NCBI RefSeq assembly: GCF_001570585.1
Contig: NZ_BBXF01000008.1
Location: 124,001 to 188,000, forward strand
Reading direction: 5' to 3'
From: Herbidospora daliensis
GTDB taxonomy: Bacteria > Actinomycetota > Actinomycetes > Streptosporangiales > Streptosporangiaceae
Length of the DNA stretch: 64,000 nucleotides
Shown in pieces: positions 27,777-51,166 of the stretch; position 1 is the first letter of the stretch, and each line of letters opens with the position of its first letter. The notes beneath the pieces were generated by a model. It saw nothing but the letters and a program-made list of their open reading frames with translations, was not told the DNA's origin and did not search any database. The position numbers were made by a program, and so were the translations under genes.

Positions 27777-27819
27777 CCTCCATGGCCGGTCCGGACTCCC
27801 TCCGGGCCGGCCATGGAGG
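27777..27819. terminator. Strong hairpin between IS copy A and the TPR gene
   Basis: CCTCCATGGCCGG (27777-27789) pairs perfectly with CCGGCCATGGAGG (27807-27819) across a 17-base loop. It lies 49 bases past the stop of the minus-strand TPR gene and probably ends that operon. A plus-strand frame from the IS end to about 27759 ('KLVVTPGTDAVGILDGVSAP') may be the tail of a lost gene. Confidence 0.7.
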
Positions 27820-27867
27820 TGGAGTCGCCGGGACGGTCCGGTGCGTTCCTGGGAGGAGCGCGTGAAG

Positions 27868-29226
27868 CTACGAAGACGGATCCAGGCGGCGCACGTGCGC
27901 GACAGCCTGGAGATACCTTTCAACCAGTACGGGCTGAACTGCTGCGAGATCGGCCAGGTCCACACGGTCGCGGTCCAGGGCTTCTGCGAGCATCAGTGCT
28001 CGTCCGCGTTCGAGCGCGACCACCGCATCGGCTCCCTCGCCCTGCCGGGCCGCCGCCGACGCTGTGCGAGCGCCCAGTTCCGTGAAGCTCAGCAGCCACG
28101 TCTCTTTGTTCCGGCGGCCTGCCTGCAGGCGGTAGAGCTGTTCAGCGGCCCGCCAGGCGAAGGAGAAAGCCTCGCTCGCTTCGGCCCAAGCGTCCCGCTC
28201 CATCGCCCAAATGCCCCAGTTCTGTGCGGCCGACAAGATGTCCTCCGCATACGCGTGCGTGTCGAGTTCACAGCATCGGCGGTACAGGGCGATCGCCTCG
28301 CGCGTGTCGCCTGCGCCGAAGCGCAGTGCGGTGGCCAGATTCGTGAGCCTGCCGGGAAGGTGGGGGGAGTCGGCGGGCGTGGAAGCGACGGCCTCGCGCA
28401 GGCAGGCAGTCGCCCGGGTGTAGTCGTCGTCGGACTTCAGGACGGTCGAACGGTCCAACAGCGCGATGCCGAGATTCATGAGGATCTTGGGGTGCAGCGG
28501 GGAGCCATCAGAAAGCTCGGCGGCTCGTTCGTAGGCGCGGATCGCCAGGAGCAGATCGGTGATCTCGATCGCCGGATCGTTGCTCGCCTGGATGCTTTCC
28601 ATGGCCAGGTGCTCGTATCTCAGGCGACGGGCGTTGCCCAGGTTGTTGAGATGGCCCGAGAATTCCTGGTCACCGGCCGGGGTGTTCTTCAGCGCAGCTT
28701 CCGCGGCTTGGATGGCGGCGTCCAGAGCCGAGGGCGTGAGTGTTCGCTCGTAACGGTCGATCAGCAGCATCGACAGATTGGAATAGGCCCTGGCGGTGTC
28801 AGAGGAGCCGGGTTCGGTGTGGTCCAGAGATTCAGTCAGCAGGTCGAGTGCGGTGTCCAGGTCGTGGAGATCCCCCCGGCGGTCGTATCGGTCGGACAGG
28901 AAGACTCCCAGATTGCTCAGGTAGGTGATTCGGTCCGGCGAATCGGCGGAAGTGGTCCGCAACGCCGCCCAGCCCATGTCGATCGCCTCATCCAGGTCTG
29001 ATTCTGAAGCAGTGCGCTCATACCTGTCGGACAGGGCGACGGCCAGATTGGACAGGTAGACAGCCAGGCGGGGATCGTCGGCGGACGCCGCGTCCAGTGC
29101 GGCGCGGAAGAGGGCGATGGCTTCCTGGAGTGGTTCGAAATCTCCGGTGACGGCGTATCTCGCGCGTGCTTCGATGCCCTGCTCCACCAGTGCGCGGGAC
29201 TGTCGCGGCCCGTTCGTGTTCGTCAT
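27868..29226 (-). CDS. TPR protein ending at the pre-CHAT junction
   Basis: A 452-residue protein of tandem TPR-like units with the recurrent pattern 'YLSNLAVALSDRYERT', 'DLDEAIDMGWAALRTTSADSP'. After the repeats comes the linker typical of TPR-CHAT proteases: 'AAQNWGIWAMERDAWAEASEA', 'RNKETWLLSFTELGARTASAA', 'AVVALERGRALMLAEALDRDR'. In the family a CHAT protease domain follows at this point, but here the protein stops. The start overlaps the upstream NUDIX gene stop (ATGA). It is the third gene of the NACHT operon, presumably its sensor or adaptor. Confidence 0.82.
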   Translation of the reverse strand: MTNTNGPRQSRALVEQGIEARARYAVTGDFEPLQEAIALFRAALDAASADDPRLAVYLSNLAVALSDRYERTASESDLDEAIDMGWAALRTTSADSPDRITYLSNLGVFLSDRYDRRGDLHDLDTALDLLTESLDHTEPGSSDTARAYSNLSMLLIDRYERTLTPSALDAAIQAAEAALKNTPAGDQEFSGHLNNLGNARRLRYEHLAMESIQASNDPAIEITDLLLAIRAYERAAELSDGSPLHPKILMNLGIALLDRSTVLKSDDDYTRATACLREAVASTPADSPHLPGRLTNLATALRFGAGDTREAIALYRRCCELDTHAYAEDILSAAQNWGIWAMERDAWAEASEAFSFAWRAAEQLYRLQAGRRNKETWLLSFTELGARTASAAARQGEGADAVVALERGRALMLAEALDRDRVDLADLAAVQPVLVERYLQAVAHVRRLDPSS

Positions 29227-29990
29227 CGGCGAGGCGGCAGGTCTTGCCGGTATCGCTGTTTACCGAACAGGAATGCTGACTGCGGGCCGATGAGGTATTC
29301 CTCACGGCGTCCATCGATGATGTCCTGGCTGGTCGCCAGGATCACGCCTTTTTCTTCGGGATCCTGGGCCAAGGCGATGATGTGTTGCAGCATGCGCCAG
29401 GTGCGTTCATCAGAGGAGACGGGCTCGTGTATTTCGAATACGCGGAGCTGCCAATACTCCTTGCCGGGGATTCTCCGGGGCCGTTCGACCACTTTGCGAA
29501 CGGATTTGAACGTGAGGGCCTCAGTACCGGCGGCGAGTTCGCTGTGGCCGATTTCGGCGAGTTCCTCGGCGAGTTCTCGTCGCAGGCATTCGGTGACGGA
29601 CTCGCGGTCGCTGTTCGTGCCGAACCACCGCAGGAATGATGCCAGAGCTCGGGAGGGAAGGAAGCCGCGCAAGTCCGATGAGGTCATGTCTTCGTTCACC
29701 GAGGGGCGATCGGCGCGGAAGGAAAGGCGGTCGAGGGTAGACATCGCTTCGGGATGGAATTTGAACACCCCGCCCGGCGGCCCGTAGGAGCCGGGCGTGT
29801 AGGGGGTATGGAAAAGCACGAAGCGGTCGTCTCGGCTGATGCGCAACAACGCGCTCATCGAGACCCTCACTTTCGCGGTCGGACGCAGCGCTGTCGACCA
29901 TGCCGGGAGAATGTCCCGGTTGCGCCACGCCAACGCCCCAATGGCGATGAGAGCACTGGCTAGGAGACTGGAGACGATGCCGCTGACCAT
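29223..29990 (-). CDS. Membrane-anchored NUDIX-like protein (resembles SMODS-associated NUDIX)
   Basis: A 255-residue protein from ATG 29990 with GGAG 5 bases upstream. Residues 1-20 ('MVSGIVSSLLASALIAIGAL') form one membrane anchor. The soluble part holds 'YGPPGGVFKFHPEA' and 'ECLRRELAEELAEIG', which correspond to the glycine loop and the REx2EE part of a NUDIX box; a large insertion separates them. This architecture resembles the SMODS-associated NUDIX class proposed in nucleotide-signalling conflict systems, where it may bind or degrade a nucleotide signal at the membrane. It lies between the NACHT gene and the TPR gene in one operon. Family name is from memory of the motif layout, so moderate confidence. 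Confidence 0.65.
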   Translation of the reverse strand: MVSGIVSSLLASALIAIGALAWRNRDILPAWSTALRPTAKVRVSMSALLRISRDDRFVLFHTPYTPGSYGPPGGVFKFHPEAMSTLDRLSFRADRPSVNEDMTSSDLRGFLPSRALASFLRWFGTNSDRESVTECLRRELAEELAEIGHSELAAGTEALTFKSVRKVVERPRRIPGKEYWQLRVFEIHEPVSSDERTWRMLQHIIALAQDPEEKGVILATSQDIIDGRREEYLIGPQSAFLFGKQRYRQDLPPRR

Positions 29991-30104
29991 TCGGACTCCG
30001 GCTTCTCGGGCTGCATGTACAACGCACGTGCTGTCAGCTTGGCATGGGGGTTCAGCTCGGTGGAAGGCGAGCTGTGACAAACCCCCATCTGGGCGAGTTT
30101 GTCC

Positions 30105-33100
30105 TCACTTGTCATTCATCGCGGAGCGAGCGGGAGTCGCGTCACTCGGCGGCGGCTCGGTGAAGAGTCCGGCTTTGTGCTCGGCGTCGCGTCGTAGTCG
30201 TGACAGCACCGTCCGAACGGAGTCGGGCAGGGCCGTGGCCTGGAGCCTGGTGGTGATCGATAGGGCCACATTCGTCTCGCTGTCGGCGGGTGTGTCGTTC
30301 CGCCAAAGCTGTAAGGCGTTGGCCGCGATCTGCGCGAGCCGCGGGTCATCGAGGTCGCACCCCTCCAGCACCCGCCTCCATTCGCCCAGGTACGCCAGGC
30401 CCGTCAGTCGGCCGACGGCCACGCTGGGATGAGATCGGGCGACCGGAAAGGCCGAGAGCGTGGCTCTGGCCATGTCGGCTTCGGATCGGTTGCCTCCTCG
30501 TGCCGAAATTCTCCCCAAGTAGCCGACAGCAGCGAGAACACCCGCCAGATCGGTCTCCTCAAGGTGGCCGTACCCGCTTGTGCTGATGATCGCCGTGGTC
30601 GGGTTGCCGCTCAGTTCCACGGCGAGATCGCAGGCGTAGGGGAGCGCCTCAGTGGCGCCGACGGCGGCGGCCGCCATCACATACCGCCATGCCTGCCGGC
30701 CGGAGGGCTTCGGTCGGGCGGCGCGGAATCCGCCGGCGCCACGTTCGTCGAGCCGCACTCCGGGACCCGGCCGTGCGTCGATGAGGAATCCGAGGCCGGC
30801 CAGGCCGAAGATCGCCAGCTCGACTGCTCGGTCGTCCCCTGCCAGCAGGGACAACAGGTCGGTGATGCCGCCTCTGGTTCGGGCGAAGGCCATGGACCAA
30901 GGCCAGGCCTGCCGCCCGGCGATGCCTCGGACCTCCAGGGCTCGGGCGGTGTGCAGCGTCAGCCTCACCCCGCGCTCGCGGTCGATGGCGAACACCCCGG
31001 TCACCAGTGCGGCCAAGGATTCCAGCCGGTCGGGGTCGGCGTGCGCGGCCATCTCGGTTATGACGTGTTCGACGTGGTCCAGCGCTCTGGAGGCATTGAC
31101 GACGTCGAGGTCGGCGATGGCCGCCGCGGTGATGAGCATCCTGGAAGGTGATCCGTCAGGGACAGCGCCCATCACGATGGCAGTCGCCTGCACGGGAAGC
31201 AGACGATGGGCGGCCGCCGCCGCCACCGGCTCGTCGTCTTGGTCGATCAAGTTCATCAGACGAGCTTCGGTCTCCGGCTTGGTGAGCACGGCCCACGCAG
31301 GCGTGACGTCCTGAGAGGAGTCCGTCTCCAGGTCGTTCAGGAGGTCGGCGACATCGTCGGCGAGATCGAACCGGAACCGGTACCGGAGAAGGAGGTCGTG
31401 ATGGGGCGCGCAGGCGAGTTCGGCCAGCAGACGGCGGCGTTCGCCGGTCAGCCGGACCTGTTCCTCATGTCGTGCCGCGTCGGCGATCTCGGATTCGATG
31501 CCCTGGAGTCGGTCAGAGCACGAGGCCGTCCAACGGTGGCGGACAGCGTCGGTCGAATCGGCTTGGAGAGCCCGGAAGGCTGTCATCGCCGCGTCGGTCG
31601 TCGGCCAGGGCTGGGCCGGGTCGACGAGCTCGGCGATGCGGGGCAACAGGTGATGGAGGCCGGCTCGCCCGGCCAGATCCAGCGCGGCATGGCGGACCTG
31701 TGGCGGGGTGCCGGAGGTGAGTACTGCGTGGATCGCCTGGCGAAGTGTCGTGCGGACGCGCCCCGAGGCCGGTTCAGGCGCGCGGTGCATCATCCGTTCC
31801 AATCCCCGCAATGCGGCTACGCGCGCCGGGGCCGACACGGATGAGTCGGTCACCAGGGAGCCCAACAATTGTCTGGCCCCGCGTCCCCCGAGATCTGCCA
31901 GCGCCGACGCGGCGCGAACTCGCTCGTCTTGACGTAGGCCAGGCAGCGCGATGCGGTCGCGGAGGTCGGCACGCAACTGCGGCAGCAGGGCACGGGCGGG
32001 GGTGCGGGCGGCGCGCAGGAACTCCACGGCCAAGCCCTCGTCGTACCGCATGGCTTCGTCGACCAGCGCGGAGACGGCGGGGTCGTCTCCTTCGAGGCTG
32101 TTGAGCAGCAGAAGGATCGGCACATGCCAGCGGAAGTCCCTCACCCCCTCCAGCAGTTCCGAGCGGTTGACGCGAGCGAGCGCACGAGCGGAGAAATAGT
32201 CCTGAATCAAAGAGGATTCGAAGGTCACACTCGCGGCTTGGCGGGTGAGCAGACCGCATGCGACCAGGTCATCGACCATGTCTTCGACGTCGTCGGCGGC
32301 CGAAACGGCAGGAAGATCCGTGAGAGGCAGACGTTCCGATCTTCTGCGGGTCAGTTCACCGGCGATGGCGGACAAGACGCGGTCTCTGAGGTGAGCGTCG
32401 ATTCGCGAGGTTTCGACCAGCCTGCCGACGTATCGGCCCAACAGCGCGTTGACCGAAGGGTCGGCGTCGGGTTCCTCCGCGAGGATGTGGATCAGCGGGA
32501 GCACCGCAGGCGACCACAGGGTCGGGGAGGGCCATCGAGGGATCCCCTCACCCCCGTCGGCATGGTCGTCGACGAACCGATCGATCAATGATCGGCCGGT
32601 GTCACCGTTGGAGGCCAGCGCGCGCTGCAGGAAGGGTCGAACGAGGGCGGGAGCGGGCGGGGCCAGGATGTGGATGCTGAAAGGCCCGATATGTGAAGTG
32701 CTGCCTGAAGTGTCGGCATGAGCGCCGATGCGGCAGGCGATGACGACAGAGCTGCGGCGGCCTTCATCGAGGGCCAGGTCACGGAGCCATTCGAAGATCC
32801 CTTCTCGCCCGTCGACGCCGAGATGATCCAGGTGATCGACGAGGAGGCGGACCGCCCCGATGGCCAGGAGCGCGGGAAGCTCCTGTGCCCAGTCTGTGGG
32901 CAGTCCGCAAGCCGTCCAAGCGAGGCGCAAACCGTCCAGGTCGCCGACTGCCGACAGGTCGGCGGCGCTCACCTTCAAGGGCAGGAATGCGGGAGCCGGT
33001 GATGGATCACTCTCGATGTCGGGTGTCATCGAGCGCAGGCGAATTTCCTCGAGCAGAGTGGTTTTGCCGGCAAGGGCCTGTCCAAGGAGGACGACGTGCC

Positions 33101-34925
33101 GGTCCTGCCTGAGGAGTAGCAGGGCGTCCTGTCCCGGCGGATGACCCCCACCGGGGTATGCGGTCAGCGGGACGTACTCGACACGATCTCCAAGAGATGT
33201 CGGATGCGCCGATTGATCTCCCAGGACGCCCTTCACCAGACTGTCACGAAAGGAGGCCAGCGTCTGTTCGACGAGGGCGTCGCGGACGCCTCGACGGTCG
33301 AGTTCGGTCACCAGTTCGGCCGCGATCTCGGCTGCATCCCGGCTCCGGCCGTCCAGGATCGGGATCAGTGCCCGGGCGGCTGCTGTCAGTACAGAGATCT
33401 GCCACCTTTCGAAGACGCGATCGCTCCGCCACATCTCCGATGCCGCCCCACCGGCCGCGACGACGGCGCTCATCCCCGCGGCGGTGTGACCGTGGTCGCC
33501 CCACTTGAAGGTGCGGTTCACAGCGATCACCAGCTGTGCGGCGTATTCGCGCCACCAGGCGGGGCCCGACTGGGCCGGATAGACATGACAGCCCTGGACC
33601 CTGACCGCCCACAACAGGCGAAACGAGTTCTCCAGATCGGGGGCGACCTCCCGGATGACCTCGACGAGGGCCGCTTCGACGGCGGCTGCCCGTCGCGCGG
33701 AGCCAGGGGGTGCGGTCGCCTCCAGGGCGCGGCAGGCCAGGCCGAGCAACCGCTGCAGCAGGAGCATCTGGCCGAAACCGTGCCGACCGGCCAGCACGTC
33801 ACGGAGTAGTCCTGTTTCCAGCCAGGCGTAGTCGCTCAGCAACGGCTGTCCGGCGTCGGTCTTGTCGAAGTCGATCAGGAAGGGCCGGTCAGCGCAGACC
33901 ACGATGTTGCGAGGATTGAGGTCGCCATGGACGAGCGCGACGACCCGGCCCTGCTCTTCTCGGGTGAGAATCTCGTAAAGGCAGCCGAATGGCAGGTCGG
34001 TCTGCTCCCTGCCCCAGAAGAGGTGCGCTCCTTCACGTCGCAGGTCTGGGCACAACCTGGACATCAACGACCAACTGGCGCCGGCGAAGGTCTCAGCCAC
34101 CTTGCCGGTGATCTCGGCGACCTCGCCCGGAACCGGCGCAGCGTCTGCCGCCACCTTGATCTTGAGCCCGTAGTACTCACCCCACAGGCCGTCCCGTCCG
34201 GGGATCAGCGTCAGAGGGAGACGGACGCGGCCGAGTCCGGCCTCGGTCGGAAGGGACAGACAGGCGGCCAGCAGGGTGTCCGAGTCGACGAGGGGGCCGT
34301 CGCCGTCGTCGGGGTCCAGTGTGAGCATGCAGCCGAGCGTTCCGGCCTGACTCCGCAACGAGTCCGGACCGGGTTGCGGTTTGGCTCCGCCGTACAGCAC
34401 CGAACCCGCCGATCGGGCGAACCGGGCGATGACGTCGATCAGTCGATCGACGGTGTCGTGACAGCCCTGGCGGGCCAGGTCTTCGAGAGTGGCGAGAGAC
34501 TGATCGGGGCTACCGGAGAAGGACGTGACGTGGCCATAAACAATCAGTTCTCTCTGCCCGCGGATGCGCTTGGTCTCATCCAGCACCGCCGGCGTGGCCA
34601 GTTCGACGGGCGCGCACAGGACGTTCGACTTGCCGGCGAAATACTTCCTGTAGGCACCCCACTCCCGCGCCAGTTCTTCGGCCGGCCCGAGCTTGGCGAC
34701 GTAGCGCCAGTGCCCCTCATCCCAGTAAGCGGTGATTTCGAAGACGTCGGCGCCACCTCGTCCGCCCGTCAGCACACCGTCCACGACGATCCGGTCGGGC
34801 AATCGCGCCCACCGGCTCTCACCCTCGGACGAGGCGACCAGCCGGTGCAGCGCGTCCCGCGCCCCGGCAGGAGCGCCGTCACCGACGGAGATCCGTGGAA
34901 TCGGCACATTCCCTCCGCTTCTCAT
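30105..34925 (-). CDS. APH-like kinase / NACHT-type STAND NTPase / HEAT-repeat fusion protein
   Basis: A 1606-residue protein. Residues about 45-440 look like an aminoglycoside-phosphotransferase-type kinase: 'WRYVAKLG' (ATP-binding Lys), catalytic loop 'VHGDLNPRNIVV' (about 332-343), and metal-binding 'FLIDFDKT' (about 349-356). Residues about 580-900 form a NACHT/STAND NTPase: 'EYVPL', P-loop 'LGQALAGKTTLLEEI' (about 614-628), Walker B 'RLLVDHLDHLG' and 'VVIACRIG'. The C-terminal 700 residues are HEAT-like helical repeats ('VRAASALADLGGRGARQLL'). STAND proteins are signal-activated switches that oligomerise on ATP. A GTG at 34907 preceded by GGAGG is an alternative start. First gene of an operon with the NUDIX-like and TPR genes. 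Confidence 0.85.
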   Translation of the reverse strand: MRSGGNVPIPRISVGDGAPAGARDALHRLVASSEGESRWARLPDRIVVDGVLTGGRGGADVFEITAYWDEGHWRYVAKLGPAEELAREWGAYRKYFAGKSNVLCAPVELATPAVLDETKRIRGQRELIVYGHVTSFSGSPDQSLATLEDLARQGCHDTVDRLIDVIARFARSAGSVLYGGAKPQPGPDSLRSQAGTLGCMLTLDPDDGDGPLVDSDTLLAACLSLPTEAGLGRVRLPLTLIPGRDGLWGEYYGLKIKVAADAAPVPGEVAEITGKVAETFAGASWSLMSRLCPDLRREGAHLFWGREQTDLPFGCLYEILTREEQGRVVALVHGDLNPRNIVVCADRPFLIDFDKTDAGQPLLSDYAWLETGLLRDVLAGRHGFGQMLLLQRLLGLACRALEATAPPGSARRAAAVEAALVEVIREVAPDLENSFRLLWAVRVQGCHVYPAQSGPAWWREYAAQLVIAVNRTFKWGDHGHTAAGMSAVVAAGGAASEMWRSDRVFERWQISVLTAAARALIPILDGRSRDAAEIAAELVTELDRRGVRDALVEQTLASFRDSLVKGVLGDQSAHPTSLGDRVEYVPLTAYPGGGHPPGQDALLLLRQDRHVVLLGQALAGKTTLLEEIRLRSMTPDIESDPSPAPAFLPLKVSAADLSAVGDLDGLRLAWTACGLPTDWAQELPALLAIGAVRLLVDHLDHLGVDGREGIFEWLRDLALDEGRRSSVVIACRIGAHADTSGSTSHIGPFSIHILAPPAPALVRPFLQRALASNGDTGRSLIDRFVDDHADGGEGIPRWPSPTLWSPAVLPLIHILAEEPDADPSVNALLGRYVGRLVETSRIDAHLRDRVLSAIAGELTRRRSERLPLTDLPAVSAADDVEDMVDDLVACGLLTRQAASVTFESSLIQDYFSARALARVNRSELLEGVRDFRWHVPILLLLNSLEGDDPAVSALVDEAMRYDEGLAVEFLRAARTPARALLPQLRADLRDRIALPGLRQDERVRAASALADLGGRGARQLLGSLVTDSSVSAPARVAALRGLERMMHRAPEPASGRVRTTLRQAIHAVLTSGTPPQVRHAALDLAGRAGLHHLLPRIAELVDPAQPWPTTDAAMTAFRALQADSTDAVRHRWTASCSDRLQGIESEIADAARHEEQVRLTGERRRLLAELACAPHHDLLLRYRFRFDLADDVADLLNDLETDSSQDVTPAWAVLTKPETEARLMNLIDQDDEPVAAAAAHRLLPVQATAIVMGAVPDGSPSRMLITAAAIADLDVVNASRALDHVEHVITEMAAHADPDRLESLAALVTGVFAIDRERGVRLTLHTARALEVRGIAGRQAWPWSMAFARTRGGITDLLSLLAGDDRAVELAIFGLAGLGFLIDARPGPGVRLDERGAGGFRAARPKPSGRQAWRYVMAAAAVGATEALPYACDLAVELSGNPTTAIISTSGYGHLEETDLAGVLAAVGYLGRISARGGNRSEADMARATLSAFPVARSHPSVAVGRLTGLAYLGEWRRVLEGCDLDDPRLAQIAANALQLWRNDTPADSETNVALSITTRLQATALPDSVRTVLSRLRRDAEHKAGLFTEPPPSDATPARSAMNDK

Positions 34926-34962
34926 CGCCTACAGTCAGTATGCATAGGCAGGGGATATCGCG

Positions 34963-35346
34963 ATGTTGCAAGAACCACCCGAGCTGCCCACCTCATGGGC
35001 GGACATCTGCGCGCTCAAGCGACGGCTCAGGCAGTCGGCCCGGGAAACGGGGCATTACCTGCTATGGCGAGACCTCGACGACGACGCCAAGAAGGGCCTC
35101 GACACCATCGAGGGATGGCTGGGCCTGTGCGAGAAGATCGCTGAAGGCGGGGAGTGGTACGGCTCCTACATCATCAGAGACGGCGCGGCCGAAGATGACG
35201 ACGACGGCGAGCAGTTGTACGGGTGTCCCAACCACCGGCGTTGTGAGCGGGTCATGACCGCCTGCCCCCGGGGGCGGCCCATCTGCGAGCTGTCGGGCGA
35301 GCCGATGGCGGAACTCCCGTCGCCCGATGCGGGAGGACGTGCCTGA
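34963..35346 (+). CDS. Small acidic protein with C-terminal Cys cluster
   Basis: A 127-residue protein from ATG 34963 behind AGGGG. The N-terminal 75 residues are helical ('ADICALKRRLRQSARETGHYL'). An acidic linker 'AAEDDDDGEQ' leads to 'YGCPNHRRCERVMTACPRG' and 'PICELSGEPM', four Cys and a His that could bind zinc. It is divergent from the NACHT gene, with only 37 bases between the two starts, and lies just before the TPR-CHAT protease. No named family; likely an adaptor of the system. Confidence 0.65.
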   Translation: MLQEPPELPTSWADICALKRRLRQSARETGHYLLWRDLDDDAKKGLDTIEGWLGLCEKIAEGGEWYGSYIIRDGAAEDDDDGEQLYGCPNHRRCERVMTACPRGRPICELSGEPMAELPSPDAGGRA

Positions 35347-35387
35347 GGCCGCGTCCCCCCTTCCTCACTCCGGTCAAGGTGGTTGCC

Positions 35388-38300: not shown

Positions 38301-39059
38301 GCCCGGACCCCCACCGACGAGGGAGGACACCATCACGCGGTGGAGGAGGCGGTCATCAGTTATGCCGCCTCGGCGGAGCTCTTCTGCGAAACCGCCCGCC
38401 GTGGACGGCTGTCCATGGACGGCCGTGCCCTCATCGTCGGAAACCCCACCTTCAACCTGCGATACGCAGAGGCCGAAGCGCGGCAGATCCTTCGGCGCTG
38501 CTACCCGTCCGGTCAGTTCATCGGTCCTCCTCGTGCAGGTGAGCAGCTCCACGTGACAGCCGAAGACCTGACGTCACAGCTGTCGGGCGAGGCTGCCTTC
38601 CCCGTCATCCACCTGGCCTCCCACGGCTACGCCGCCGCGGATCCGGCACGTTCCCGGCTGGCGCTGACAGGTGGCAGGTCGTTGACCATCGAGCAGTTGC
38701 TCGCGCACGGACGGGGGATCGGGGACAGGTCCGCCGGACCGCTGGTCGTGCTTTCCGCGTGCGCGTCGGGAATGAGCAACGACGACTTCGACGAGATGAT
38801 GACGCTCACCACGGCCTTCCTCATCGCAGGAGCCTCAGCCGCCGTCGGCTCACTGTGGATCGTGGACGACCGCACGACCGCAGACCTCATGACCACCTTT
38901 CACGAGTTGCTGACCTCGGATCTTCCGGATCCGGCAGATGCGCTGCGGGCGGCCCAGATCGAGATGATTCGGGCCGGTCGTCAAACCTCGCCCGTGCCTG
39001 GCCGCCGTTCTCCGGGGGATCCGTACTGCTGGGCCGCCTTCACCCATCAAGGGAACTGA
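35388..39059 (+). CDS. TPR-CHAT caspase-like protease
   Basis: A 1223-residue protein (ATG 35388, AAGGTGG upstream). Residues about 15-700 are some 14 TPR-like units ('LLWLNNLGNLSLALYDCTGEL', 'RAGFAANLATSHLQRFRARGD'). After the linker 'VIESARGLVHRAAMF', the CHAT domain occupies about 890-1223. The catalytic dyad is His1079 in 'IHLASHGYA' and Cys1125 in 'VVLSACASGM', with 'GASAAVGSLWIVDD' and the terminal 'DPYCWAAFTHQGN' conserved. CHAT domains are caspase/separase-fold cysteine proteases; TPR-CHAT is known as a Craspase-type effector and in actinobacterial conflict systems. The TPRs probably sense a partner or infection signal and release the protease. Confidence 0.9.
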   Translation: MPDSHRDRLLIDRARIIEHLGTLRAGDLTRLLWLNNLGNLSLALYDCTGELEHLQAAVDWHTAAWTQSPGDDPGRAGFAANLATSHLQRFRARGDSSDLAAAREHIESALAITPSGHEQLPGRLHTLGNVLEVMFRRHADPEVLEEATRARRRTLEAVPEGARGRSILLTGAGNTAKLRYETHLDIADLDAALAFHEQALAEAPSDAVRAAARSNLSNCYADRFQISGVQTDLAAALDLAEGALALTAKDHPERAGRASNLASMLRARYDHEGDPADLDRAIALTEGALAGHPAGSPGRPALLGNLGAALHTRFRHRGSGADLETAAGLLREAVTASGVSKAELPRWKNNLGNVLSSLFLRTSDMRDLDEAIDSLRGAVALTPGAHPQRAARLHNLAGSLHRRVAYRGSVADLNEAITCYSAAAQAAPAGRRLASAANAGLGATLGLRFALQGDGEDLDAAVRRLRLALRFVGDLDPDRPTWLVNLADQLIRRFQHTQDRDALDEAIEVLAQATRATEPGHPFQSLRLETHGRALAMRFEAFADLADADAAVRRCEQAADAALDPVDRGTALHVLGDVLQARYVYAAGPEDLNRAGAALREAARILPATHPDHPIARRSLALWVRFCAALNHDRHAADQAVDLLESLARRTSRPGRPDPVTLMELATAYRVRSELPGDPLRGREDRSLSRRTGQEALQACAEEVLLQPGTADGLAVARRTARRGSAVISWCLLDDEVAEAVEVIESARGLVHRAAMFTGSTGRRLRAAGHDDLATRWEAEQALAIQSRGTMVGATAVAPPDAPIMPSRLRGEVISVLAGRGLETAFSPDALSATLAETRTDALVHLLPGTAERPGYAVLTPARGPSRRLILDDFHAVPGGHLSVFVDAYNRLLVAAAREMRGPDDEDPHRERRRLTEAWIATLHALCDWAWEAVMAPVLTAVGDLSPACDGAPPRLVLVPVGHAALVPWHAARTPTDEGGHHHAVEEAVISYAASAELFCETARRGRLSMDGRALIVGNPTFNLRYAEAEARQILRRCYPSGQFIGPPRAGEQLHVTAEDLTSQLSGEAAFPVIHLASHGYAAADPARSRLALTGGRSLTIEQLLAHGRGIGDRSAGPLVVLSACASGMSNDDFDEMMTLTTAFLIAGASAAVGSLWIVDDRTTADLMTTFHELLTSDLPDPADALRAAQIEMIRAGRQTSPVPGRRSPGDPYCWAAFTHQGN

Positions 39060-41761
39060 CCTGGCGGCCGCTCGATGGGTGGGCGGCCGGTGGATCCTGA
39101 GAGGGTCGCGATCGTGGTCGACGCGGCCGCGAAGCGCGCCACGAGGTCGGAGCGCTGGGAGGACAGCGGTTCCAGGCGATGGCGCTGGAGGGCCTCGTCG
39201 AGAAGGGCCGCACGTCCACTGTCGAGTGCCAAGACCGCTTGGGCGAGATCGCCGGCCATCACCTTGGCGGCCGCGGCCTCGGCGGCGAGCTGCCCGGCGA
39301 CGCGCAGCCAGTTCTCTTTGTGCGCGCGCAGAAGTTGACTCGTGAAAACCTGCCGCAGCGCGGCCAACGCGTGGTCGTAGGCCTCGACCGCGTCGGGCGC
39401 CGCTTGCCGGGCCATCGCCCACCTGCCCCAGTTCCGCGCTGCTTCCAATGCCCACAGCGCGTCGGTCAGCGCGCCTTCCCGACACGCGGTGCGGAACGCC
39501 TCGGTGGCCTCGCGGAGATCGGCTCGGGCGTCGGAACGGGTGTGACGATCGCGCAGGAAACAGCCCGCGCTGTTGAGGTACACGGGTCGAGACGGCGAGG
39601 TGGGCGGCAACAGATTCAAGGCTGATCGGATGAGGTCGATGGCGTGATCGAGATCAGCGTCGGCACCGTCGCGCCGCCAGCGAAACCAGACCGCTCCCGC
39701 GTGGTTGGCGATGACACGGGCCCGGTCGGAGGATCGCGCGGGCATGGCGTCGAGGGCCTCGGCGTAGGTGTCCAGGGCGCGGTCGAGGTCGCCGGGATCC
39801 TGCGTACGCTCGTAGCGGTTCACGAGTGCGTTGGCGAGGTTGTCGAGGTAGACGGGCAGGTCAGGGGCGGTCGGCGGGGTTCGCAGCACGAGGTCGTCGA
39901 AGGCCGACAACGCGGTTTCGAGGTCGGAGATCTGGTTCAGGTGCCGATAGCGGACGCGGAGCGCGTTCCCCCAATCGTTGACGACACCGGCTCGATGGGG
40001 GGATTGAGGAGGCGTCGCCTCTACGGCCTCGGCCAGACGACTCACGGCCTCGTCGAGGTCGGCGTCGACTCCGCTGCGATCGAAGCGGGACAGCAGGGCG
40101 TCCGCGAGGCCTTGAAAGGCGTCTCGGCGCATTGAGGAGGCGCCGCCGAAGTGTGCCGACGCGGCGATCTGTGCCCGGCGGGCGGCGATGGCCTTCTGAA
40201 GGTCGTGCAGGTCGCCGGTGAGGTTGTAGCGATCATTCAGAGCTTCGGCCAGGTTGCCCAGATAGCGTCCCCGCCGGGGCCCGGTTCGTTGCTCACCCCC
40301 GGGAGTGACGAGCTCTGTGAAGCGTTGTATGACGTCGGTCAGCTCTTCCCGTCTCTGACCGGTCATCCTGCTGCGGCTAAGTCGTGCGAGAGCCTGATTG
40401 TTGCGGTCGCCCATCGTGGGCGGCAGACTGCCATTGCGGGTGACCGCGCTGTCGAACAGGGCCTGCGCACGTTCGAGGTCTCGGTCATCCCCGACGATGT
40501 GCCAGCGTTCGATGAGCGCGACCGCCAGGTTGCCCTGCTGGTCGGCGCAGGCGGGCGATCGCGGTGCGACGGCGTCCACGGCGAACTCGAGCAGCTCGAT
40601 CGCCCGGTCGAGAGCGTGACGTGATCCGTCCACACCGAACTGCTCCATCAGGCAGAGGGCCAGTGTCGCCGTCCCCGTGGGTCCGATGATGGACTGCTCG
40701 TGCCCGGCGTGGAAGGCGCCTTCTCCCGCTTGTATCGCCAGGCGGAGCTCACGCTGGTCGCCGGATCGTTCGTACTGCGCCAGCAGGGCGTTGACATAAC
40801 CGATACGCGCGTGTTGAGAGAGGCCCTCGCGGTCGTAGAGACGCAGGCCCCGGGCGAGATCGTCGGGGTCGCCGTGTTCTTCGTAGCGGGTCACCAGGGC
40901 TTGGGCAAGGGTGTGCATCTGCCGACCGCGGTCGGCCGCAGTCGAAGGACTGAGCGCGAGAGCCCGTTCGGCCGAGGAGACGGCCTCCGTCAAATCGGAG
41001 AGGTCGCCGAGGCGGCGGTGCCGAGCGAGCAGGGAGCCGGACAGGTTCGCCAGGCGCAGCGGCAGGTCGGGAGATCGTCTCTCGGTCAGGTCGATCGCCT
41101 GCCGATAGGCGTTGATCGCTTCGGTCATGTGGCCGGCTTCGCCGGTGAGGTCGAAGAGTTCCTGGAGGGCGGTGCCCAGGTTCGTCAGGTGCAGAGGGCG
41201 ATTGGAGTCCTGAGGTCGTCCACGACTGACCGCCTGGTGGTGGGCGGCCAGCGAGGACTCCAGGTGGGTGGTGTCATGGTCGATGAGATAGCGCTCGAAG
41301 TGAACCAGCCCGAGATTGTCCAAGACGGTCGGGACGAGATCGTCATCGTCATCGTCGAGAGCGAGTTCAGCGGCCAGGGTGAGGACCTCGCCGGCCTCCT
41401 CGAGCAGCGATCGCACGTCGGTGTGGGCGTAGGACGTGCGCAGGCAGTTGCCCAGATTGTTGAGGACGTACGGATCGCCGTGTGATGTGATGACGTCCGC
41501 TTGCCGGTAGACGCGCAGAGCGTAGTCCAGGTCGTCTCCGTCGCCGAGAACCCCGAAACGCTCGAGCAGTGCGCCGCCGAGTTCACCCACCAAATCGGGG
41601 TCGGAGGGGACGAGGAGGGAGATCTGCTCCCACAATTGCACAGCCAGCGTCGCCGCCTCGACGTCGCCGGTCTCGGCGAATTCCTCTCCGGCCGCATCGG
41701 CGCGGCGGATGAGGTCGTCCAGGTCCGGTTCCGCTGGAATGTCGTCGTTGAACAGGGCCAT
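39047..41761 (-). CDS. Large TPR protein ending at the pre-CHAT junction
   Basis: A 904-residue protein made of about 15 TPR-like units ('VLNNLGNCLRTSYAHTDVR', 'PVYLDNLANALVNRYERTQD'). Its end, 'AARNWGRWAMARQAAPDAVE', 'RAHKENWLRVAGQLAAEAAAA', 'AVLALDSGRAALLDEALQRHR', is the linker that precedes CHAT in fused proteins, and no CHAT domain follows. The stop overlaps the convergent TPR-CHAT stop by 13 bases. Two separate CHAT genes lie directly upstream in the same operon, so the protease function may have been split into separate subunits. Confidence 0.82.
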   Translation of the reverse strand: MALFNDDIPAEPDLDDLIRRADAAGEEFAETGDVEAATLAVQLWEQISLLVPSDPDLVGELGGALLERFGVLGDGDDLDYALRVYRQADVITSHGDPYVLNNLGNCLRTSYAHTDVRSLLEEAGEVLTLAAELALDDDDDDLVPTVLDNLGLVHFERYLIDHDTTHLESSLAAHHQAVSRGRPQDSNRPLHLTNLGTALQELFDLTGEAGHMTEAINAYRQAIDLTERRSPDLPLRLANLSGSLLARHRRLGDLSDLTEAVSSAERALALSPSTAADRGRQMHTLAQALVTRYEEHGDPDDLARGLRLYDREGLSQHARIGYVNALLAQYERSGDQRELRLAIQAGEGAFHAGHEQSIIGPTGTATLALCLMEQFGVDGSRHALDRAIELLEFAVDAVAPRSPACADQQGNLAVALIERWHIVGDDRDLERAQALFDSAVTRNGSLPPTMGDRNNQALARLSRSRMTGQRREELTDVIQRFTELVTPGGEQRTGPRRGRYLGNLAEALNDRYNLTGDLHDLQKAIAARRAQIAASAHFGGASSMRRDAFQGLADALLSRFDRSGVDADLDEAVSRLAEAVEATPPQSPHRAGVVNDWGNALRVRYRHLNQISDLETALSAFDDLVLRTPPTAPDLPVYLDNLANALVNRYERTQDPGDLDRALDTYAEALDAMPARSSDRARVIANHAGAVWFRWRRDGADADLDHAIDLIRSALNLLPPTSPSRPVYLNSAGCFLRDRHTRSDARADLREATEAFRTACREGALTDALWALEAARNWGRWAMARQAAPDAVEAYDHALAALRQVFTSQLLRAHKENWLRVAGQLAAEAAAAKVMAGDLAQAVLALDSGRAALLDEALQRHRLEPLSSQRSDLVARFAAASTTIATLSGSTGRPPIERPPGQFP

Positions 41762-41817
41762 GTCCTTGTCATCCTTAGCGCCGGGATTCACACAGATGAT
41801 CCGGTCCCCCGGATCGG

Positions 41818-43500
41818 TCAACGCCCGGCGACTGTGGCTGTGGGGGAGCCGTAGACGCTGTAGGCAAGCCAGGTCGGATCGCCCGCCTCGTCCATGATGT
41901 CCAGTCGCGCCGCCATCGTCGCCTGACCCAACGGCTTGCCACGTTGACAGAAGTGCTCGTAGAAGCAATCAGCGAACCGGGCTGCCGACGTCGACCGCAC
42001 CCCCCAAAGGGAACCGATGAAAGCACCCGCGCCGATTCGCAGGAACGTGTCGGCCCACCCCGTGTTGGTGCGGATGGCCGGCGCCTGACCTGCTGTGCGG
42101 CATCCGTTGAGGAAGACCAGCGGGTTGCTCTTCCACCGGTTGCGATGCGCAGCCAGCTCGAGGTCGACGGGCCGCAGTTCGCCTCCGTGCAGTCGTACGG
42201 CCGGCCCGTGGGGCAGGGAGTATTCGTGGTGTCCGGCCAGATGCAGGATCCCGGCGAGATCGGCCTCGACGAGGGCGTGCAGATCGTCGAGGTCTTCGAT
42301 GACGGGATCATCGCTGATGGTCTGGACCCTGTTCCGGATCGCCGCCATCTCGGCCGAAAAGCCATCGGCGTGTCCCTCATCACCGGGCTGCGGTGGTGGT
42401 GCGACGCAGACCAGGCGGTTCACGGCCAGCCTTTGCACCCGTTTGTGCCCGTAGGTCCAGCGGACGATCGGCACCGTCTCGGCGAGGAATCCGTTTTCCC
42501 GGTCGCCGTCCACCGGGTAGAGTAGTTCCCACGGGATGACGTCCAGTTCGCTGACGATGGTGAGGGAGCTGATTCGGCCAGCTTGCGCCCAGAACTGCTC
42601 ACGCACCTTCTCGGGCACGATGCCCCATAGTTCGGCTCCCCTGCCTTGAAGCCGGCGGCGGATCAAAGACGAGGAATCGTGAGAGGCTTCACCGGCTGCC
42701 ATGCGTGTCAGTTCATCGACGATGCGTTCGACGATCTGCGATGGATCGGCGGCGAGTCGGCTCACCGACTCGGGAGCGTTCATGACCTCGCCGAGGAATT
42801 GGAAGCGGTATCCGTCGTTGTCGCGCTGGACGTGAAGGGTGACCTCTCCGGGGTCGGGGGGAGCCGAGGAGAGAGCGGTGGCCTGCACTATCGGTTCCTG
42901 GCCGGAGACGACGGTTTGAGCTGCGAGCTGGACTGCGGTCTCACCGAGCAGCGTGCCATTGCGGAAGACGCGCACGGTCACCCTGTGCAGACCTGCGGTG
43001 TGGGCAACGAGGCCGAACCGTACCGGTTCTGAGTCGCCGTCGGCGGGAACGGTCAGTTCGGCTTCCATATCGTCTTTGACGACGAGAGTGGGAGCCCACA
43101 AGGAGATCAGGACCCGAGCTCCGTGGGACGGGACGTCGAAAGCGCGCAGCGCGGCCCCGAGATCGGAGTCTGATCGCGTGATCCGGACGTAGAGGGGCAC
43201 GCGCTGTCCCAAGGCCATGTTCTCCGGCGCCGACACCTCCAGGAACCGGACCAGCTGCGCGGTGCGGTAGCCCTCCTCCTCAGGCACTTGGGTGCGCAGC
43301 CAGGCGCGGGTCTGCTCGTGACGGGTGAGCAGTTTGCGCAGCCTCTGCTTGGCCGCAGGGCCGCTGGGCATGCTCATGGCCAGGTCGAGATCCCGGATGA
43401 AGGTCATGGCAGTGCCGGAGTCTCCGATCAGCGTTGCCGCCAGCGGCCGGATCCGCTCGGCGAGAAGGCGCCACTCCGGCTCGGTCAGCGATGCGCGCAC
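41818..43500 (-). CDS. CHAT protease with N-terminal helical (EAD-like) and beta-sandwich domains
   Basis: A 560-residue protein starting at GTG behind AGGAG. Residues 1-75 form a helical domain ('EPEWRLLAERIRPLAATLIG', 'KQRLRKLLTRHEQTRAWLR') similar in size and place to effector-associated death-like domains. Residues about 85-230 look like a beta sandwich ('GARVLISLWAPTLVVKDDME'). The C-terminal CHAT domain has 'ILHLAGHHEYS' with His424/425 and 'LVFLNGCRTAG' with Cys467, plus 'GAGAFIGSLWGVR'. An active caspase-like protease is likely. Spacing to the upstream CHAT gene is 33 bases and to the TPR gene 56 bases. Confidence 0.85.
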   Translation of the reverse strand: MRASLTEPEWRLLAERIRPLAATLIGDSGTAMTFIRDLDLAMSMPSGPAAKQRLRKLLTRHEQTRAWLRTQVPEEEGYRTAQLVRFLEVSAPENMALGQRVPLYVRITRSDSDLGAALRAFDVPSHGARVLISLWAPTLVVKDDMEAELTVPADGDSEPVRFGLVAHTAGLHRVTVRVFRNGTLLGETAVQLAAQTVVSGQEPIVQATALSSAPPDPGEVTLHVQRDNDGYRFQFLGEVMNAPESVSRLAADPSQIVERIVDELTRMAAGEASHDSSSLIRRRLQGRGAELWGIVPEKVREQFWAQAGRISSLTIVSELDVIPWELLYPVDGDRENGFLAETVPIVRWTYGHKRVQRLAVNRLVCVAPPPQPGDEGHADGFSAEMAAIRNRVQTISDDPVIEDLDDLHALVEADLAGILHLAGHHEYSLPHGPAVRLHGGELRPVDLELAAHRNRWKSNPLVFLNGCRTAGQAPAIRTNTGWADTFLRIGAGAFIGSLWGVRSTSAARFADCFYEHFCQRGKPLGQATMAARLDIMDEAGDPTWLAYSVYGSPTATVAGR

Positions 43501-43533
43501 CGCGGGCTCCTCACAGTCTCCTGCGCGGACGGG

Positions 43534-44838
43534 TCACACTCCGACATGGCAGAACGCCGCCCAGTGGCGAATGGAGGCGTCATCATGTCGCCCGGGTTCG
43601 CGCTGCAGAATCCAGTCGAGGTGCGCATCCGCGACGCCGGGATCCGGCCACGAGGGATCTTCTTCGAAGGCGCGTTCCAAAACCTGCGCCTTCTCCTCGT
43701 TGGTGCTGTCTCGAAGCCAGAGCTGAGCTGTCCTCAAGGCTTGGGCCGGCGACCACGAGGGGCTGCGCCAGTCGCGGTAGAACTCGGTCATCAGCATGCT
43801 CGTCCGCACGTCCGGCACCGCCCACATCGGCGCGACGACACCGGCAGCCCCGGCTTGCAGAAGTCCGGCGGGAAGTCCGATGACCTCGTCCGGCAAGTCC
43901 GTCCCCGGCAGAGAGGCCTCGCATGAGGACAGGACCGCGACCCTGATCTTCAATTCCATCTCCAGCAGATCCCGCACACGAAGCGCCTGCCCGGCCGACA
44001 GCACGAGCCCGCTTTCCAGCGGATTGGTTAGGTCGGCGTAGCCGTGGCAGGCGAAGTGGACGACGTCAGCCGCCCGAAGTCTGCGGCGAACCTCAGGGAG
44101 CACCGCCGCTGACCCGGCGAGGACATTCGCCGTGCCTAGGGTGGCCGCCCTGACCGTGGCCTCTTCCAGTGCCGTGAACGGAATCGGCCGGAAGGCCGCG
44201 GACATGGGCTGTGGATCGATGACGGCCATGACCCTCTCCCTGCCCCGATCGGCGGCGATCTGCCTGGCTGCGGTCAGCGATCTGGCATTGGGCGCATAGC
44301 TGATGGCAGAGGTGTCTAGCGCGTAGCTGCGGCCCGTCGGTTTGGCCTGATCCGGTGTCCAGGCAGCGTGTAGTGGCAGGAGACCGAGCAGTCCGCCGGG
44401 GACCAGGGTGATGGCCGGTTCCGGTCCGATCAGGTCGAAGAGTGGTTCCATGACGGTGTCCCACAGCCACCGCGTGACCGCGTCCAGGTCGGCTTCCCAC
44501 GGCCCGGCGACCGAAGTGGGATCGGTCCGGAATTCGTGGTAGGAACTGAACAACGCCGACACGCGAGTTTTCAGCGAATCCGTGGTCAGGTCGGGGAGCA
44601 CCACGGAGTCGACCCCGCCGTCGGAACGAACGACCATCGCGAGGCCTTCCGCATCGGTCGCGCTTATGTAGCACAGTGGCTGGAACGCGGCGGCGGCTAT
44701 GTCACCGAAGGTCGGAGCCGCGAGGAAATCCGCGTATCCGGGCACCTGGCGAATGTCCTCGACGACATCGTTGAGTTCCCGCCACGCGGCCCGTAGCTCC
44801 TCGAGGTCGTCGCCCTCCACGCCGGCTGGATCACTCAT
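43534..44838 (-). CDS. Stand-alone CHAT protease
   Basis: A 434-residue protein. The N-terminal 140 residues are helical and strand-rich ('LRAAWRELNDVVEDIRQVPGY') and resemble the pre-CHAT part of fused proteins. The CHAT domain has 'DVVHFACHGYADL' with His265, 'VAVLSSCEASLPG' with Cys306, and the C-terminal 'IRHWAAFCHVGV', typical of the family. It opens an operon with the second CHAT gene and the TPR gene. Its target might be the NACHT-operon proteins, a toxin precursor or host machinery; sequence does not tell. Confidence 0.87.
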   Translation of the reverse strand: MSDPAGVEGDDLEELRAAWRELNDVVEDIRQVPGYADFLAAPTFGDIAAAAFQPLCYISATDAEGLAMVVRSDGGVDSVVLPDLTTDSLKTRVSALFSSYHEFRTDPTSVAGPWEADLDAVTRWLWDTVMEPLFDLIGPEPAITLVPGGLLGLLPLHAAWTPDQAKPTGRSYALDTSAISYAPNARSLTAARQIAADRGRERVMAVIDPQPMSAAFRPIPFTALEEATVRAATLGTANVLAGSAAVLPEVRRRLRAADVVHFACHGYADLTNPLESGLVLSAGQALRVRDLLEMELKIRVAVLSSCEASLPGTDLPDEVIGLPAGLLQAGAAGVVAPMWAVPDVRTSMLMTEFYRDWRSPSWSPAQALRTAQLWLRDSTNEEKAQVLERAFEEDPSWPDPGVADAHLDWILQREPGRHDDASIRHWAAFCHVGV

Positions 44839-44943
44839 GGTGAGGATGCTACGCGTCGGGATGATCGTCGCATGGTGACTGCAGTGGAACGCCCGGCTAT
44901 TTCGTTTATGTCGTGAATGCGTAATGTTGAAAGGCGCCGCGAA

Positions 44944-45502
44944 TCAACGGGCGCTCACCGCAACCCTTTGCATGACTATCGGCACGAAGGCCGCCGGGAT
45001 CAGGGCGAAGTGGAGGATGGTGACGGTAAGCCACGCGGGTTCGCTCGTCACCTGGGCGACCGCCATGGCGATGGAAGTCACCATGAGACCCCCGGTGATC
45101 AACAGGTAGACGCCCAGAGTCCGGCTGGAGGTCAGGAACCGCCGAGGTTGCCCGAGCCCGAGCCACCAGCGCAGCGCCCACCACAGGACCAGGCTCGCCA
45201 CGGCCACGACGACGGCCGAGAAGGCCGCCGCTCCGGGGCTCGGCGGCACGTCCTCGTCCAGCGCGCCGAGGCCGAGCCACCCCGTCACGACGAACGGCAC
45301 GAAGCAGAGCCAGGCCGCGAGGTTCAACGCCGAGACGACGCGCCTGCCGGGAACGGTGGCCTGGAGTTCGCGGGACACGGCCCGCCAGAGGTGGACGGCG
45401 GGCCCGATGTCGTCGCCGCCACGCCGCACTCTGATCGCCCGGTAGACCCAGACTGCGGCCACGCCCAGCGCGACGACGATCACCAGCCCCGTCAGCGGGG
45501 AC
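44944..45502 (-). pseudogene. Integral membrane protein truncated by IS copy B
   Basis: Reading leftward from the IS end: 'LVIVVALGVAAVWVYRAIRV', 'LNLAAWLCFVPFVVTGWLGLG', 'AFSAVVVAVASLVLWWALRW' and 'LGVYLLITGGLMVTSIAMAV', four membrane segments, stop at 44944. The frame is open back to the IS terminus at 45503, so the N-terminus was lost to the insertion. No family recognised. Confidence 0.65.
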
Positions 45503-48403: not shown

Positions 48404-48405
48404 CG

Positions 48406-49391: not shown

Positions 49392-49552
49392 GCGCATGAC
49401 CTTGAAGATAGGCAAATCGTATGGAATGCACGCTACCATAGCCATCATCAGGAGTCAGGTCTAGGTTACTGTCACCCCACCCTCAAGGGCGCAGTCGCTT
49501 CCGATTGCGACATTTGGGGATTTTTGCTGTCTGATTCAGGGAGGAAACGCGC

Positions 49553-51151: not shown

Positions 51152-51166
51152 CGTAAAGGTGGAAAA

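What the first reader, a model, noticed from the sequence alone, without database searches (positions are those of the whole stretch)
27777..44943. Kinase-NACHT, NUDIX, TPR and three CHAT proteases in one island
Eight genes in 17 kb all belong to families of NTP-switched, protease-executed conflict systems. One operon has an APH-like/NACHT/HEAT protein, a membrane NUDIX-like protein and a TPR protein. A divergent pair has a Cys-cluster protein and TPR-CHAT. A facing operon has two CHAT proteases and a TPR protein. Three separate caspase-like dyads (His1079/Cys1125, His424/Cys467, His265/Cys306) are intact. I know of STAND and TPR-CHAT systems separately but not of this full set. A defence or programmed-death role is inference.
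Basis: partly seen in the sequence, partly recalled or inferred. Interest (0 to 1): 0.9.

Follow-up and report, generated by a model that had tools for sequence, protein, structure and literature searches.

The report
Kinase-switch and caspase-like defence cassette
Eight neighbouring actinomycete genes (a kinase-NACHT switch protein, a small cysteine protein, three caspase-like proteases, two partner scaffold proteins and an effector enzyme) recur as a set, whole or in part, in other bacteria with the effector swapped, so they look like one modular immune or cell-suicide system.

Summary
All eight genes are open and the three caspase-like His/Cys dyads are present. The set is not a chance pile-up: Streptomyces sp. 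MNU76 carries an eight-gene equivalent and Actinomadura formosensis five of the genes (29-59% protein identity). In MNU76 the window's Sa-NUDIX effector is replaced by a 4TM effector. Both are families known from CBASS, yet no SMODS cyclase was found in the window's genome. In a third relative the partner is a Lamassu/Avs1a-like nuclease fused to a CHAT domain. The kinase-NACHT protein carries Pfam TCAD9, which print ties to vWA-MoxR-VMAP systems. Its tree splits into a VMAP-linked clade and this clade (Cys protein in 6 of 7 loci; 0 of 11 in the other). The CHAT-less TPR proteins end about where free-standing CHAT3 begins on fused TPR-CHATs, so they look like a split TPR-CHAT. The Cys protein matches no Pfam family. 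Two IS copies in direct orientation bracket the cassette. Best reading: an infection-triggered abortive system in which the NACHT switch licenses TPR-held CHAT proteases, which release an exchangeable effector. Conservation and modularity are shown; trigger, substrates and defence role are inferred. New variant of a known kind.

The parts
27868..29226 (-). P0001 TPRa: CHAT-less TPR protein, 452 aa, last gene of operon A; overlaps P0002 by 4 bases
   Evidence: TPR_10 1.9e-11; its C-terminus maps just before the CHAT part in 7 of 9 fused TPR-CHATs
29223..30080 (-). P0002 Sa-NUDIX effector with one hydrophobic segment; start codon uncertain (TTG 30080 or later)
   Evidence: Sa_NUDIX 1.7e-37; PADLOC CBASS '2TM' effector models 4.4e-21 and DRT RTasNUDIX 7.2e-17; R168, E172, E173 of the NUDIX box invariant in 4 of 4 rows
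30105..34925 (-). P0003 TCAD9 (APH-like kinase) - NACHT-like P-loop - HEAT-like repeats, 1606 aa, first gene of operon A
   Evidence: TCAD9 1.7e-82; kinase residues invariant in 19 of 19; HEAT_2 called in the L022 relative
34963..35346 (+). P0004 small Cys protein, 127 aa, divergent from P0003 (37 bases between start codons)
   Evidence: No Pfam match at E<=10; relatives in 8 further loci share the CPxxxCxR...PxC...M motif
35379..39059 (+). P0005 TPR-CHAT (start GTG 35379 or ATG 35388), tandem with P0004
   Evidence: CHAT 5e-46; His1082/Cys1128
39047..41761 (-). P0006 TPRb: CHAT-less TPR protein (ATG start 41761; ORF opens at TTG 41968)
   Evidence: 42% identical to the L022 homologue over residues 60-965 and 41.5% to the G116 one over 81-927; TPR-S 27.7 bits, cut-off 27.6; start
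41818..43500 (-). P0007 CHAT2: free-standing CHAT protein with an N-terminal region of about 280 aa of unknown fold
   Evidence: CHAT 2.3e-17; H424 and C467 invariant in 4 of 4
43534..44838 (-). P0008 CHAT3: free-standing CHAT protein, first gene of operon B
   Evidence: CHAT 7.5e-56; H265 and C306 invariant in 4 of 4; similar to Csx29 of Craspase
44944..45483 (-). Possible ninth gene: 179 aa with five hydrophobic segments; its start lies 19 bases from the right IS, so it may be truncated
   Evidence: no Pfam search was made on it; no PADLOC match; not found beside the core in other loci
26467..27684 (+). Left IS copy, reading frame broken
   Evidence: 86% identical to the right copy over 1239 aligned columns, 23-bp terminal inverted repeats
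45503..46730 (+). Right IS copy, same orientation, rve_3-type transposase
   Evidence: rve_3 8.5e-4, below its cut-off

Best explanation
One modular conflict system of the abortive-infection type. SHOWN: a rare gene core (TCAD9-NACHT, Cys protein, CHAT3, CHAT2, TPR partner) is conserved across genera while the effector next to it changes. INFERRED: the HEAT-like part of P0003 senses an invader; ATP binding by the NACHT-like module drives assembly; its APH-like kinase gates the switch, perhaps by phosphorylating a small molecule or a partner. The CHAT-less TPR proteins dock the free-standing CHAT proteases as a split TPR-CHAT and hold them off until the switch fires. The CHATs then cleave a target, the Cys protein and/or the effector, and the effector (Sa-NUDIX here, a 4TM protein in Streptomyces MNU76, probably an MBL nuclease in G116) stops the cell. 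The CHATs are thus initiators; the exchangeable effector is the executioner.
For: Recurrence in L022 (eight-gene equivalent) and L023 (five genes). Tree of 20 proteins: window, L022 and L023 form a 100/100 clade inside a 7-row clade (96/97); the 12-row clade (100/99) is the VMAP-linked one. Cys protein in 6 of 7 and CHAT-like protein in 5 of 7 loci of the first clade, both in 0 of 11 examined loci of the second. Effector swap: Sa_NUDIX (window, L029, L032, L036), S_4TM 3.7e-82 in L022, LmuA-like MBL-CHAT fusion in G116, PADLOC 2.7e-49. MBL-fold pro-nucleases are activated by partner proteases, caspases included, in other systems (PMC12799240, passages). Split TPR-CHAT geometry in 8 of 9 fused proteins for TPRb. 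Defence-island hint: pPIWI-RE genes beside the Lentzea locus.
Against: No experiment. No trigger, substrate or cleavage site known. CHAT2 and CHAT3 orthologues beside TCAD9-NACHT were found in two other loci only. L023 has a methyltransferase, not a recognised effector, beside TCAD9-NACHT. The three other Sa-NUDIX relatives show no hydrophobic segment at the threshold that finds one in P0002, so membrane action is not a shared trait. In L030 the CHAT lacks its catalytic stretch, and a simple motif search found both dyad residues in 12 of 17 CHATs only. Both flanking IS copies are old and the host may have repurposed the set.
Confidence: 0.58

Rival explanations
1. Two or three independent systems lie side by side in a defence island: a TCAD9-NACHT/Sa-NUDIX system, a Cys protein/TPR-CHAT system and a CHAT3/CHAT2/TPRb system.
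For: Subsets occur alone: Cys protein + TPR-CHAT + membrane protein in G189, G006, G167 (in G167 the TPR-CHAT is about 1.9 kb away); CHAT3 + TPR without TCAD9-NACHT in G116; TCAD9-NACHT + Cys protein + Sa-NUDIX without CHAT within the fetched stretch in Lentzea.
Against: The three subsets meet again in L022, and in part in L023, with different gene orders but the same partners. The window's P0003 is closest in the tree to the proteins of exactly those two loci (100/100), as expected if the partners travel and evolve together.
Confidence: 0.22
2. A host programme of development, stress or programmed death in multicellular actinomycetes, not aimed at phage: TPR-CHATs and STAND proteins regulate lysis, with Sa-NUDIX acting on NAD- or ADP-ribose-like metabolites.
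For: Conflict systems of this style are concentrated in multicellular prokaryotes (PMC7159879, abstract). P0006 reaches the TPR-S model by 0.1 bit; that TPR-S was proposed to sense NAD-derived signals is recalled from Burroughs and Aravind 2020, not held.
Against: Sporadic presence: in 7 genomes of the genus only the window's own has the strong CHAT3 match, P0007 in 0 of the 6 congeners listed. IS bracketing and an exchangeable effector fit a conflict system better than a core developmental programme.
Confidence: 0.13
3. A decayed or piled-up locus: the TPR-only proteins are truncated TPR-CHATs and part of the island is dead.
For: Both TPR proteins stop where CHAT would begin; both flanking transposase genes are degraded; TPR-CHAT genes are common in actinomycetes (recalled).
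Against: TPRb keeps the same CHAT-less length in L022 (42%, aligned to residue 965 of 973) and G116, and the L023 TPR protein also lacks CHAT. All eight frames are open and the kinase and CHAT2/CHAT3 catalytic residues are conserved. No CHAT remnant was found.
Confidence: 0.05
4. A CBASS variant: Sa-NUDIX or 4TM effectors answer a cyclic nucleotide.
For: Both effector families are PADLOC CBASS effectors.
Against: No SMODS (PF18144) match in the own genome (the same search found it in 3 of 14 control genomes); none in the window ORFs scanned. One model only was tested, so an unusual cyclase is not excluded.
Confidence: 0.02

Closest known systems
vWA-MoxR-VMAP ternary systems (Kaur et al. 2020, PMC7159879: outline, section 14 and passages seen; TCAD9 link in PMC10910872, legend passage)
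   Same: Same TCAD9 domain; NTP-switch logic; Kaur reports a few active APH-superfamily kinases among effectors; TCAD9-NACHT relatives sit beside a VMAP protein (EAD2-VMAP-M0-VMAP-C).
   Different: No VMAP, MoxR or vWA above cut-off among the 28 window ORFs scanned. TCAD9-NACHT is coupled to the Cys protein, split TPR/CHAT and CBASS-type effectors instead, and forms a separate clade.
Craspase (type III-E gRAMP with TPR-CHAT Csx29; PMC9729208, listing only)
   Same: CHAT3 resembles Csx29 (NCBIfam 2.2e-15, below cut-off; PDB chain 8d9f_A 6.6e-8); protease tied to a TPR scaffold.
   Different: TPR and CHAT on separate chains; a kinase-NACHT protein in place of an RNA-guided effector; no Cas protein among the window ORFs scanned. 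CRISPR arrays were not searched.
Canu and protease-nuclease pairs of Hachiman, AVAST, Lamassu (PMC12799240, passages)
   Same: A caspase-like protease beside a switchable effector. G116 fuses an LmuA/Avs1a-like MBL domain to CHAT.
   Different: The window has no MBL nuclease; its effector is Sa-NUDIX. CHAT, not the MALT1-like caspase of Canu.
CBASS 2TM/4TM effectors and DRT NUDIX partner (PADLOC)
   Same: Sa-NUDIX and S_4TM effector families.
   Different: No SMODS cyclase.
[quoted passage not shown] original paper not held)
   Same: Caspase-like protein plus TPR plus effector logic, as far as the passages say.
   Different: No CATRA-named Pfam model matched the window proteins or the Cys family. 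That Pfam holds such models is recalled.
Bacterial NACHT/NLR-like defence (Avs, bNACHT; recalled)
   Same: STAND-type P-loop with helical repeats.
   Different: P0003 matches no PADLOC model; an N-terminal kinase-like domain and protease partners in trans.

Membership tests
TCAD9 domain family (PF19974) | Score over the curated cut-off | tested here: met
   278 against 40 bits
vWA-MoxR-VMAP ternary system | VMAP, MoxR and vWA partners | tested here: not met
   None above cut-off in Pfam scans of the 8 cassette ORFs and 20 flanking ORFs; one sub-cut-off TssR_VWA match (0.0071) to a flanking ORF
CHAT proteases | CHAT model over cut-off and a His/Cys dyad | tested here: met
   P0005, P0007, P0008; activity not tested
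CBASS | CD-NTase (SMODS) cyclase | tested here: not met
   0 in the own genome with PF18144
CBASS | CBASS-type effector | tested here: met
   Sa_NUDIX, PADLOC 2TM models
Craspase / type III-E | gRAMP (Cas7-11) and CRISPR array | not tested
   No Cas family among the ORFs scanned; arrays and the rest of the genome not searched
Craspase / type III-E | Csx29 model over its cut-off | tested here: not met
   56.6 (P0008) and 30.7 (P0005) against 300 bits
Canu | Caspase plus gated MBL-fold nuclease | tested here: not met
   No MBL domain in the cassette; present in the G116 relative
CATRA | CATRA protein | tested here: inconclusive
   No such model matched; existence of the models recalled
STAND/NACHT NTPases | NACHT P-loop and Walker B | tested here: inconclusive
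   Motifs present; Pfam NACHT only weakly in L023 (20.3 bits, cut-off 26.7) and not in P0003
Composite transposon | Two like IS copies at both ends | tested here: met
   86% identity, direct orientation, intact 23-bp ends
Composite transposon | Target-site duplication and working transposase | tested here: not met
   No duplication seen by eye at the ends; left frame split, right frame apparently shifted internally

The most novel reading that the evidence does not exclude
A bacterial counterpart of an apoptosome-plus-caspase cascade built from split parts: a kinase-NACHT receptor with an obligatory small Cys-motif partner assembles free TPR scaffolds that recruit free CHAT proteases (initiator and executioner CHATs), and these unleash whichever effector has been slotted in. 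It is a system class of its own that borrowed TCAD9 from, or lent it to, VMAP systems, and it founds an unnamed family of Cys-motif proteins tied to CHAT.
Probability: 0.33. Interest if true: 0.87.

Novelty: new variant of a known kind. Interest (0 to 1): 0.72.

Why it matters
It places an APH-like kinase, a NACHT-type switch, caspase-like proteases on separate TPR scaffolds and an exchangeable immune effector in one conserved set, so it offers a testable bacterial model of receptor-to-caspase-to-executioner signalling. It gives TCAD9 a second context, shows CHAT systems drawing on CBASS and Lamassu/Avs effectors, and brings up a small Cys-motif protein family without a Pfam model that marks such loci.

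Tried and rejected
Led nowhere: genome-contig scan with P0007 alone (no relative confirmed). Viral-contig scans with the CHAT3 and TCAD9-NACHT alignments (no relative; pattern-limited). Plasmids: no CHAT3 at E<=1e-30 and no TPRb at E<=1e-60; P0007 gave 6 records and P0003 4 partial ones. CHAT2 profile: 6 of 394 class genomes, the five besides the own weak (1e-32 to 7e-24) and not examined. Promoter/terminator scan: no promoter-like site, fewer terminator-like sites than in shuffles. NCBIfam named no protein. PDB: no match for the TCAD9-NACHT or Sa-NUDIX alignments; one CHAT entry for CHAT2.

Considered and rejected: CBASS proper (no cyclase), VMAP ternary system proper (no VMAP partner), Craspase (Csx29 score far below cut-off), dead TPR-CHAT halves (TPRb length conserved).

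Rows dropped before counts: L040 (a match of 38 residues) was left out of all counts of the 19 loci; L036 holds TCAD9 only and lacks the P-loop region; L031 falls outside both clades. L005 (G424, in the tree) was not scanned with the Cys, CHAT or NUDIX profiles. G020, G357 and G401 hits were not fetched further. Only L026 of the nine VMAP-like cluster members was Pfam-scanned. The Cys profile used was built from the window, L023 and L030 proteins, so only L022, L029 and L032 are independent finds there.
Full report
OBSERVATION. They form three same-strand groups: P0003-P0002-P0001 (minus), P0004-P0005 (plus), P0008-P0007-P0006 (minus). Gaps within groups are 56 bases or less, with one 4-base overlap, taking the ATG at 41761 as the start of P0006. 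Pfam names TCAD9 in P0003, Sa_NUDIX in P0002, CHAT in P0005, P0007 and P0008, and TPR in P0001 and P0006. TCAD9 carries APH-like catalytic residues: K78, E88, H333, D335, N340 and D352 are invariant in 19 of 19 aligned proteins, and the L036 relative matches Pfam APH weakly, below cut-off. Walker A lysine is kept in 16 of the 18 proteins that reach it.

CO-OCCURRENCE. P0003 relatives are rare: 2 of 100 family genomes and TCAD9 in 2 of 394 class genomes, own genome included in both; only a few candidates per genome were scored, so these are lower bounds. P0007 relatives: 7 of 250 family genomes including the own. A scan of named genomes with an alignment of four TCAD9-NACHT proteins gave 19 loci. 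Streptomyces sp. MNU76 (L022) has CHAT3 (50.6%), CHAT2 (45.8%), Cys protein (38.9%), TCAD9-NACHT (34.9%) and TPRb (42%, residues 60-965), plus a second TPR protein (35% to TPRa) and a TPR-CHAT, and directly after TPRb an S_4TM protein (3.7e-82). That is the window's gene content with Sa-NUDIX exchanged for S_4TM.

TWO CONTEXTS OF TCAD9-NACHT. A maximum-likelihood tree of 20 proteins gives a 12-row clade (100/99) and a 7-row clade (96/97); in the latter the window, L022 and L023 group at 100/100. In the 12-row clade, 9 of the 11 loci examined have a neighbour of one sequence cluster whose L026 member is EAD2-VMAP-M0-VMAP-C, the published context. In the 7-row clade the Cys protein is found in 6 of 7, a CHAT or CHAT-like protein in 5 of 7 (in L030 without its catalytic stretch) and Sa_NUDIX or S_4TM in 5 of 7; profiles found no Cys protein, CHAT or Sa-NUDIX in the 11 loci of the other clade. 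Some of those contigs are short (L028, L037). S_4TM was not searched for systematically.

THE CYS PROTEIN. Nine members align, with W/C in the first half in most and a shared CP-x3/4-C-x-R ... P-x-C ... M tail. None has a family match in Pfam; one weak, sub-cut-off hit to a DNA-ligase zinc finger (E 0.13) in L023. It lies directly divergent from TCAD9-NACHT in 5 of the 6 loci that have both. In 394 class genomes it occurs in 4; in the three besides the own it sits near a divergent TPR-CHAT (about 1.9 kb away in G167) and before a membrane protein with 2-3 hydrophobic segments. It is therefore a CHAT companion in general. A zinc-binding adaptor, inhibitor or substrate role is inference.

SPLIT TPR-CHAT. 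On nine fused TPR-CHATs, the C-terminus of TPRb maps just ahead of where CHAT3 begins in 8 of 9, that of TPRa in 7 of 9; the exceptions are the window's own P0005 for both, and G167 for TPRa. TPRb homologues without CHAT exist in L022 and G116, and the L023 TPR protein also lacks CHAT. No further CHAT was found in the window.

EFFECTOR SLOT. Sa-NUDIX stands beside TCAD9 in the window, L029, L032 and L036 (42-45% identity); NUDIX-box residues R168, E172, E173 are kept in 4 of 4. In G116, CHAT3 and TPRb stand beside a 1082-aa protein whose N-terminal part matches LmuA (2.7e-49), RTasMBL and Avs1a and whose C-terminal part matches CHAT weakly (1.6e-5). Published work shows that such MBL nucleases are pro-enzymes cut by a partner protease (PMC12799240, passages). 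From this comes the proposal that the CHATs activate the effector. Against a simple membrane model, only the window's Sa-NUDIX shows a hydrophobic segment at the threshold used.

MOBILITY. Two IS copies, 26467-27684 and 45503-46730, lie in the same orientation at both sides of the cassette, 86% identical, with 23-bp terminal inverted repeats (4 matches, 0.00 expected). In the own genome the only other long match is a broken copy on contig C3. Both transposase frames look damaged and no target duplication was seen, so this is an old bracket. The cassette is sporadic: among 7 genomes of the genus only the own has the strong CHAT3 match (8.9e-227; two others match in long fused frames at 1e-45 and 1e-44). 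The Lentzea locus adjoins pPIWI-RE genes. To the right of the window's cassette lies a type VII secretion locus.

PRINT. Ten full-text searches of an open-access library showed no paper that describes this set; subscription papers, including the original CATRA paper, could not be read. TCAD9 is mentioned as a domain associated with vWA-MoxR-VMAP (PMC10910872, legend passage).

VERDICT. A conserved, modular system: shown. That it is an NTP-switched, protease-triggered abortive system: best-supported inference, confidence 0.58.

Noticed in passing
window 26467-27684 and 45503-46730: Two direct copies of one IS bracket the cassette; two of the few long copies in the 8.5 Mb genome.
   Followed up: yes
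window 44944-45483 (-): Possible ninth gene: 179 aa with five hydrophobic segments upstream of CHAT3, perhaps truncated by the right IS.
   Followed up: partly
window 48068-56937: Type VII secretion locus (WXG100, T7SS signal, EccD, FtsK/SpoIIIE-type ATPase) right of the cassette.
   Followed up: no
L055 14392-17640: LmuA/Avs1a-like MBL domain fused to a CHAT domain beside CHAT3 and two CHAT-less TPR proteins.
   Followed up: partly
L045, L046, L047: Recurring trio of TPR-CHAT, Cys-motif small protein and a membrane protein of about 300 aa without a Pfam family.
   Followed up: partly
L029 14164-15264 and L030 8329-9330: Related proteins of 333-366 aa without a Pfam family near TCAD9-NACHT in two loci of the same clade.
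   Followed up: no
L029 3836-9579: pPIWI-RE defence genes next to the Lentzea TCAD9-NACHT locus.
   Followed up: no
L061 (Streptomyces sp. NBC_00080 plasmid): A protein of about 1680 aa related to the C-terminal half of P0003, followed by genes in the layout of the VMAP-linked clade.
   Followed up: partly
window 22777-23912: Remains of an IS630-like transposase (DDE_3 and HTH parts) left of the cassette.
   Followed up: no
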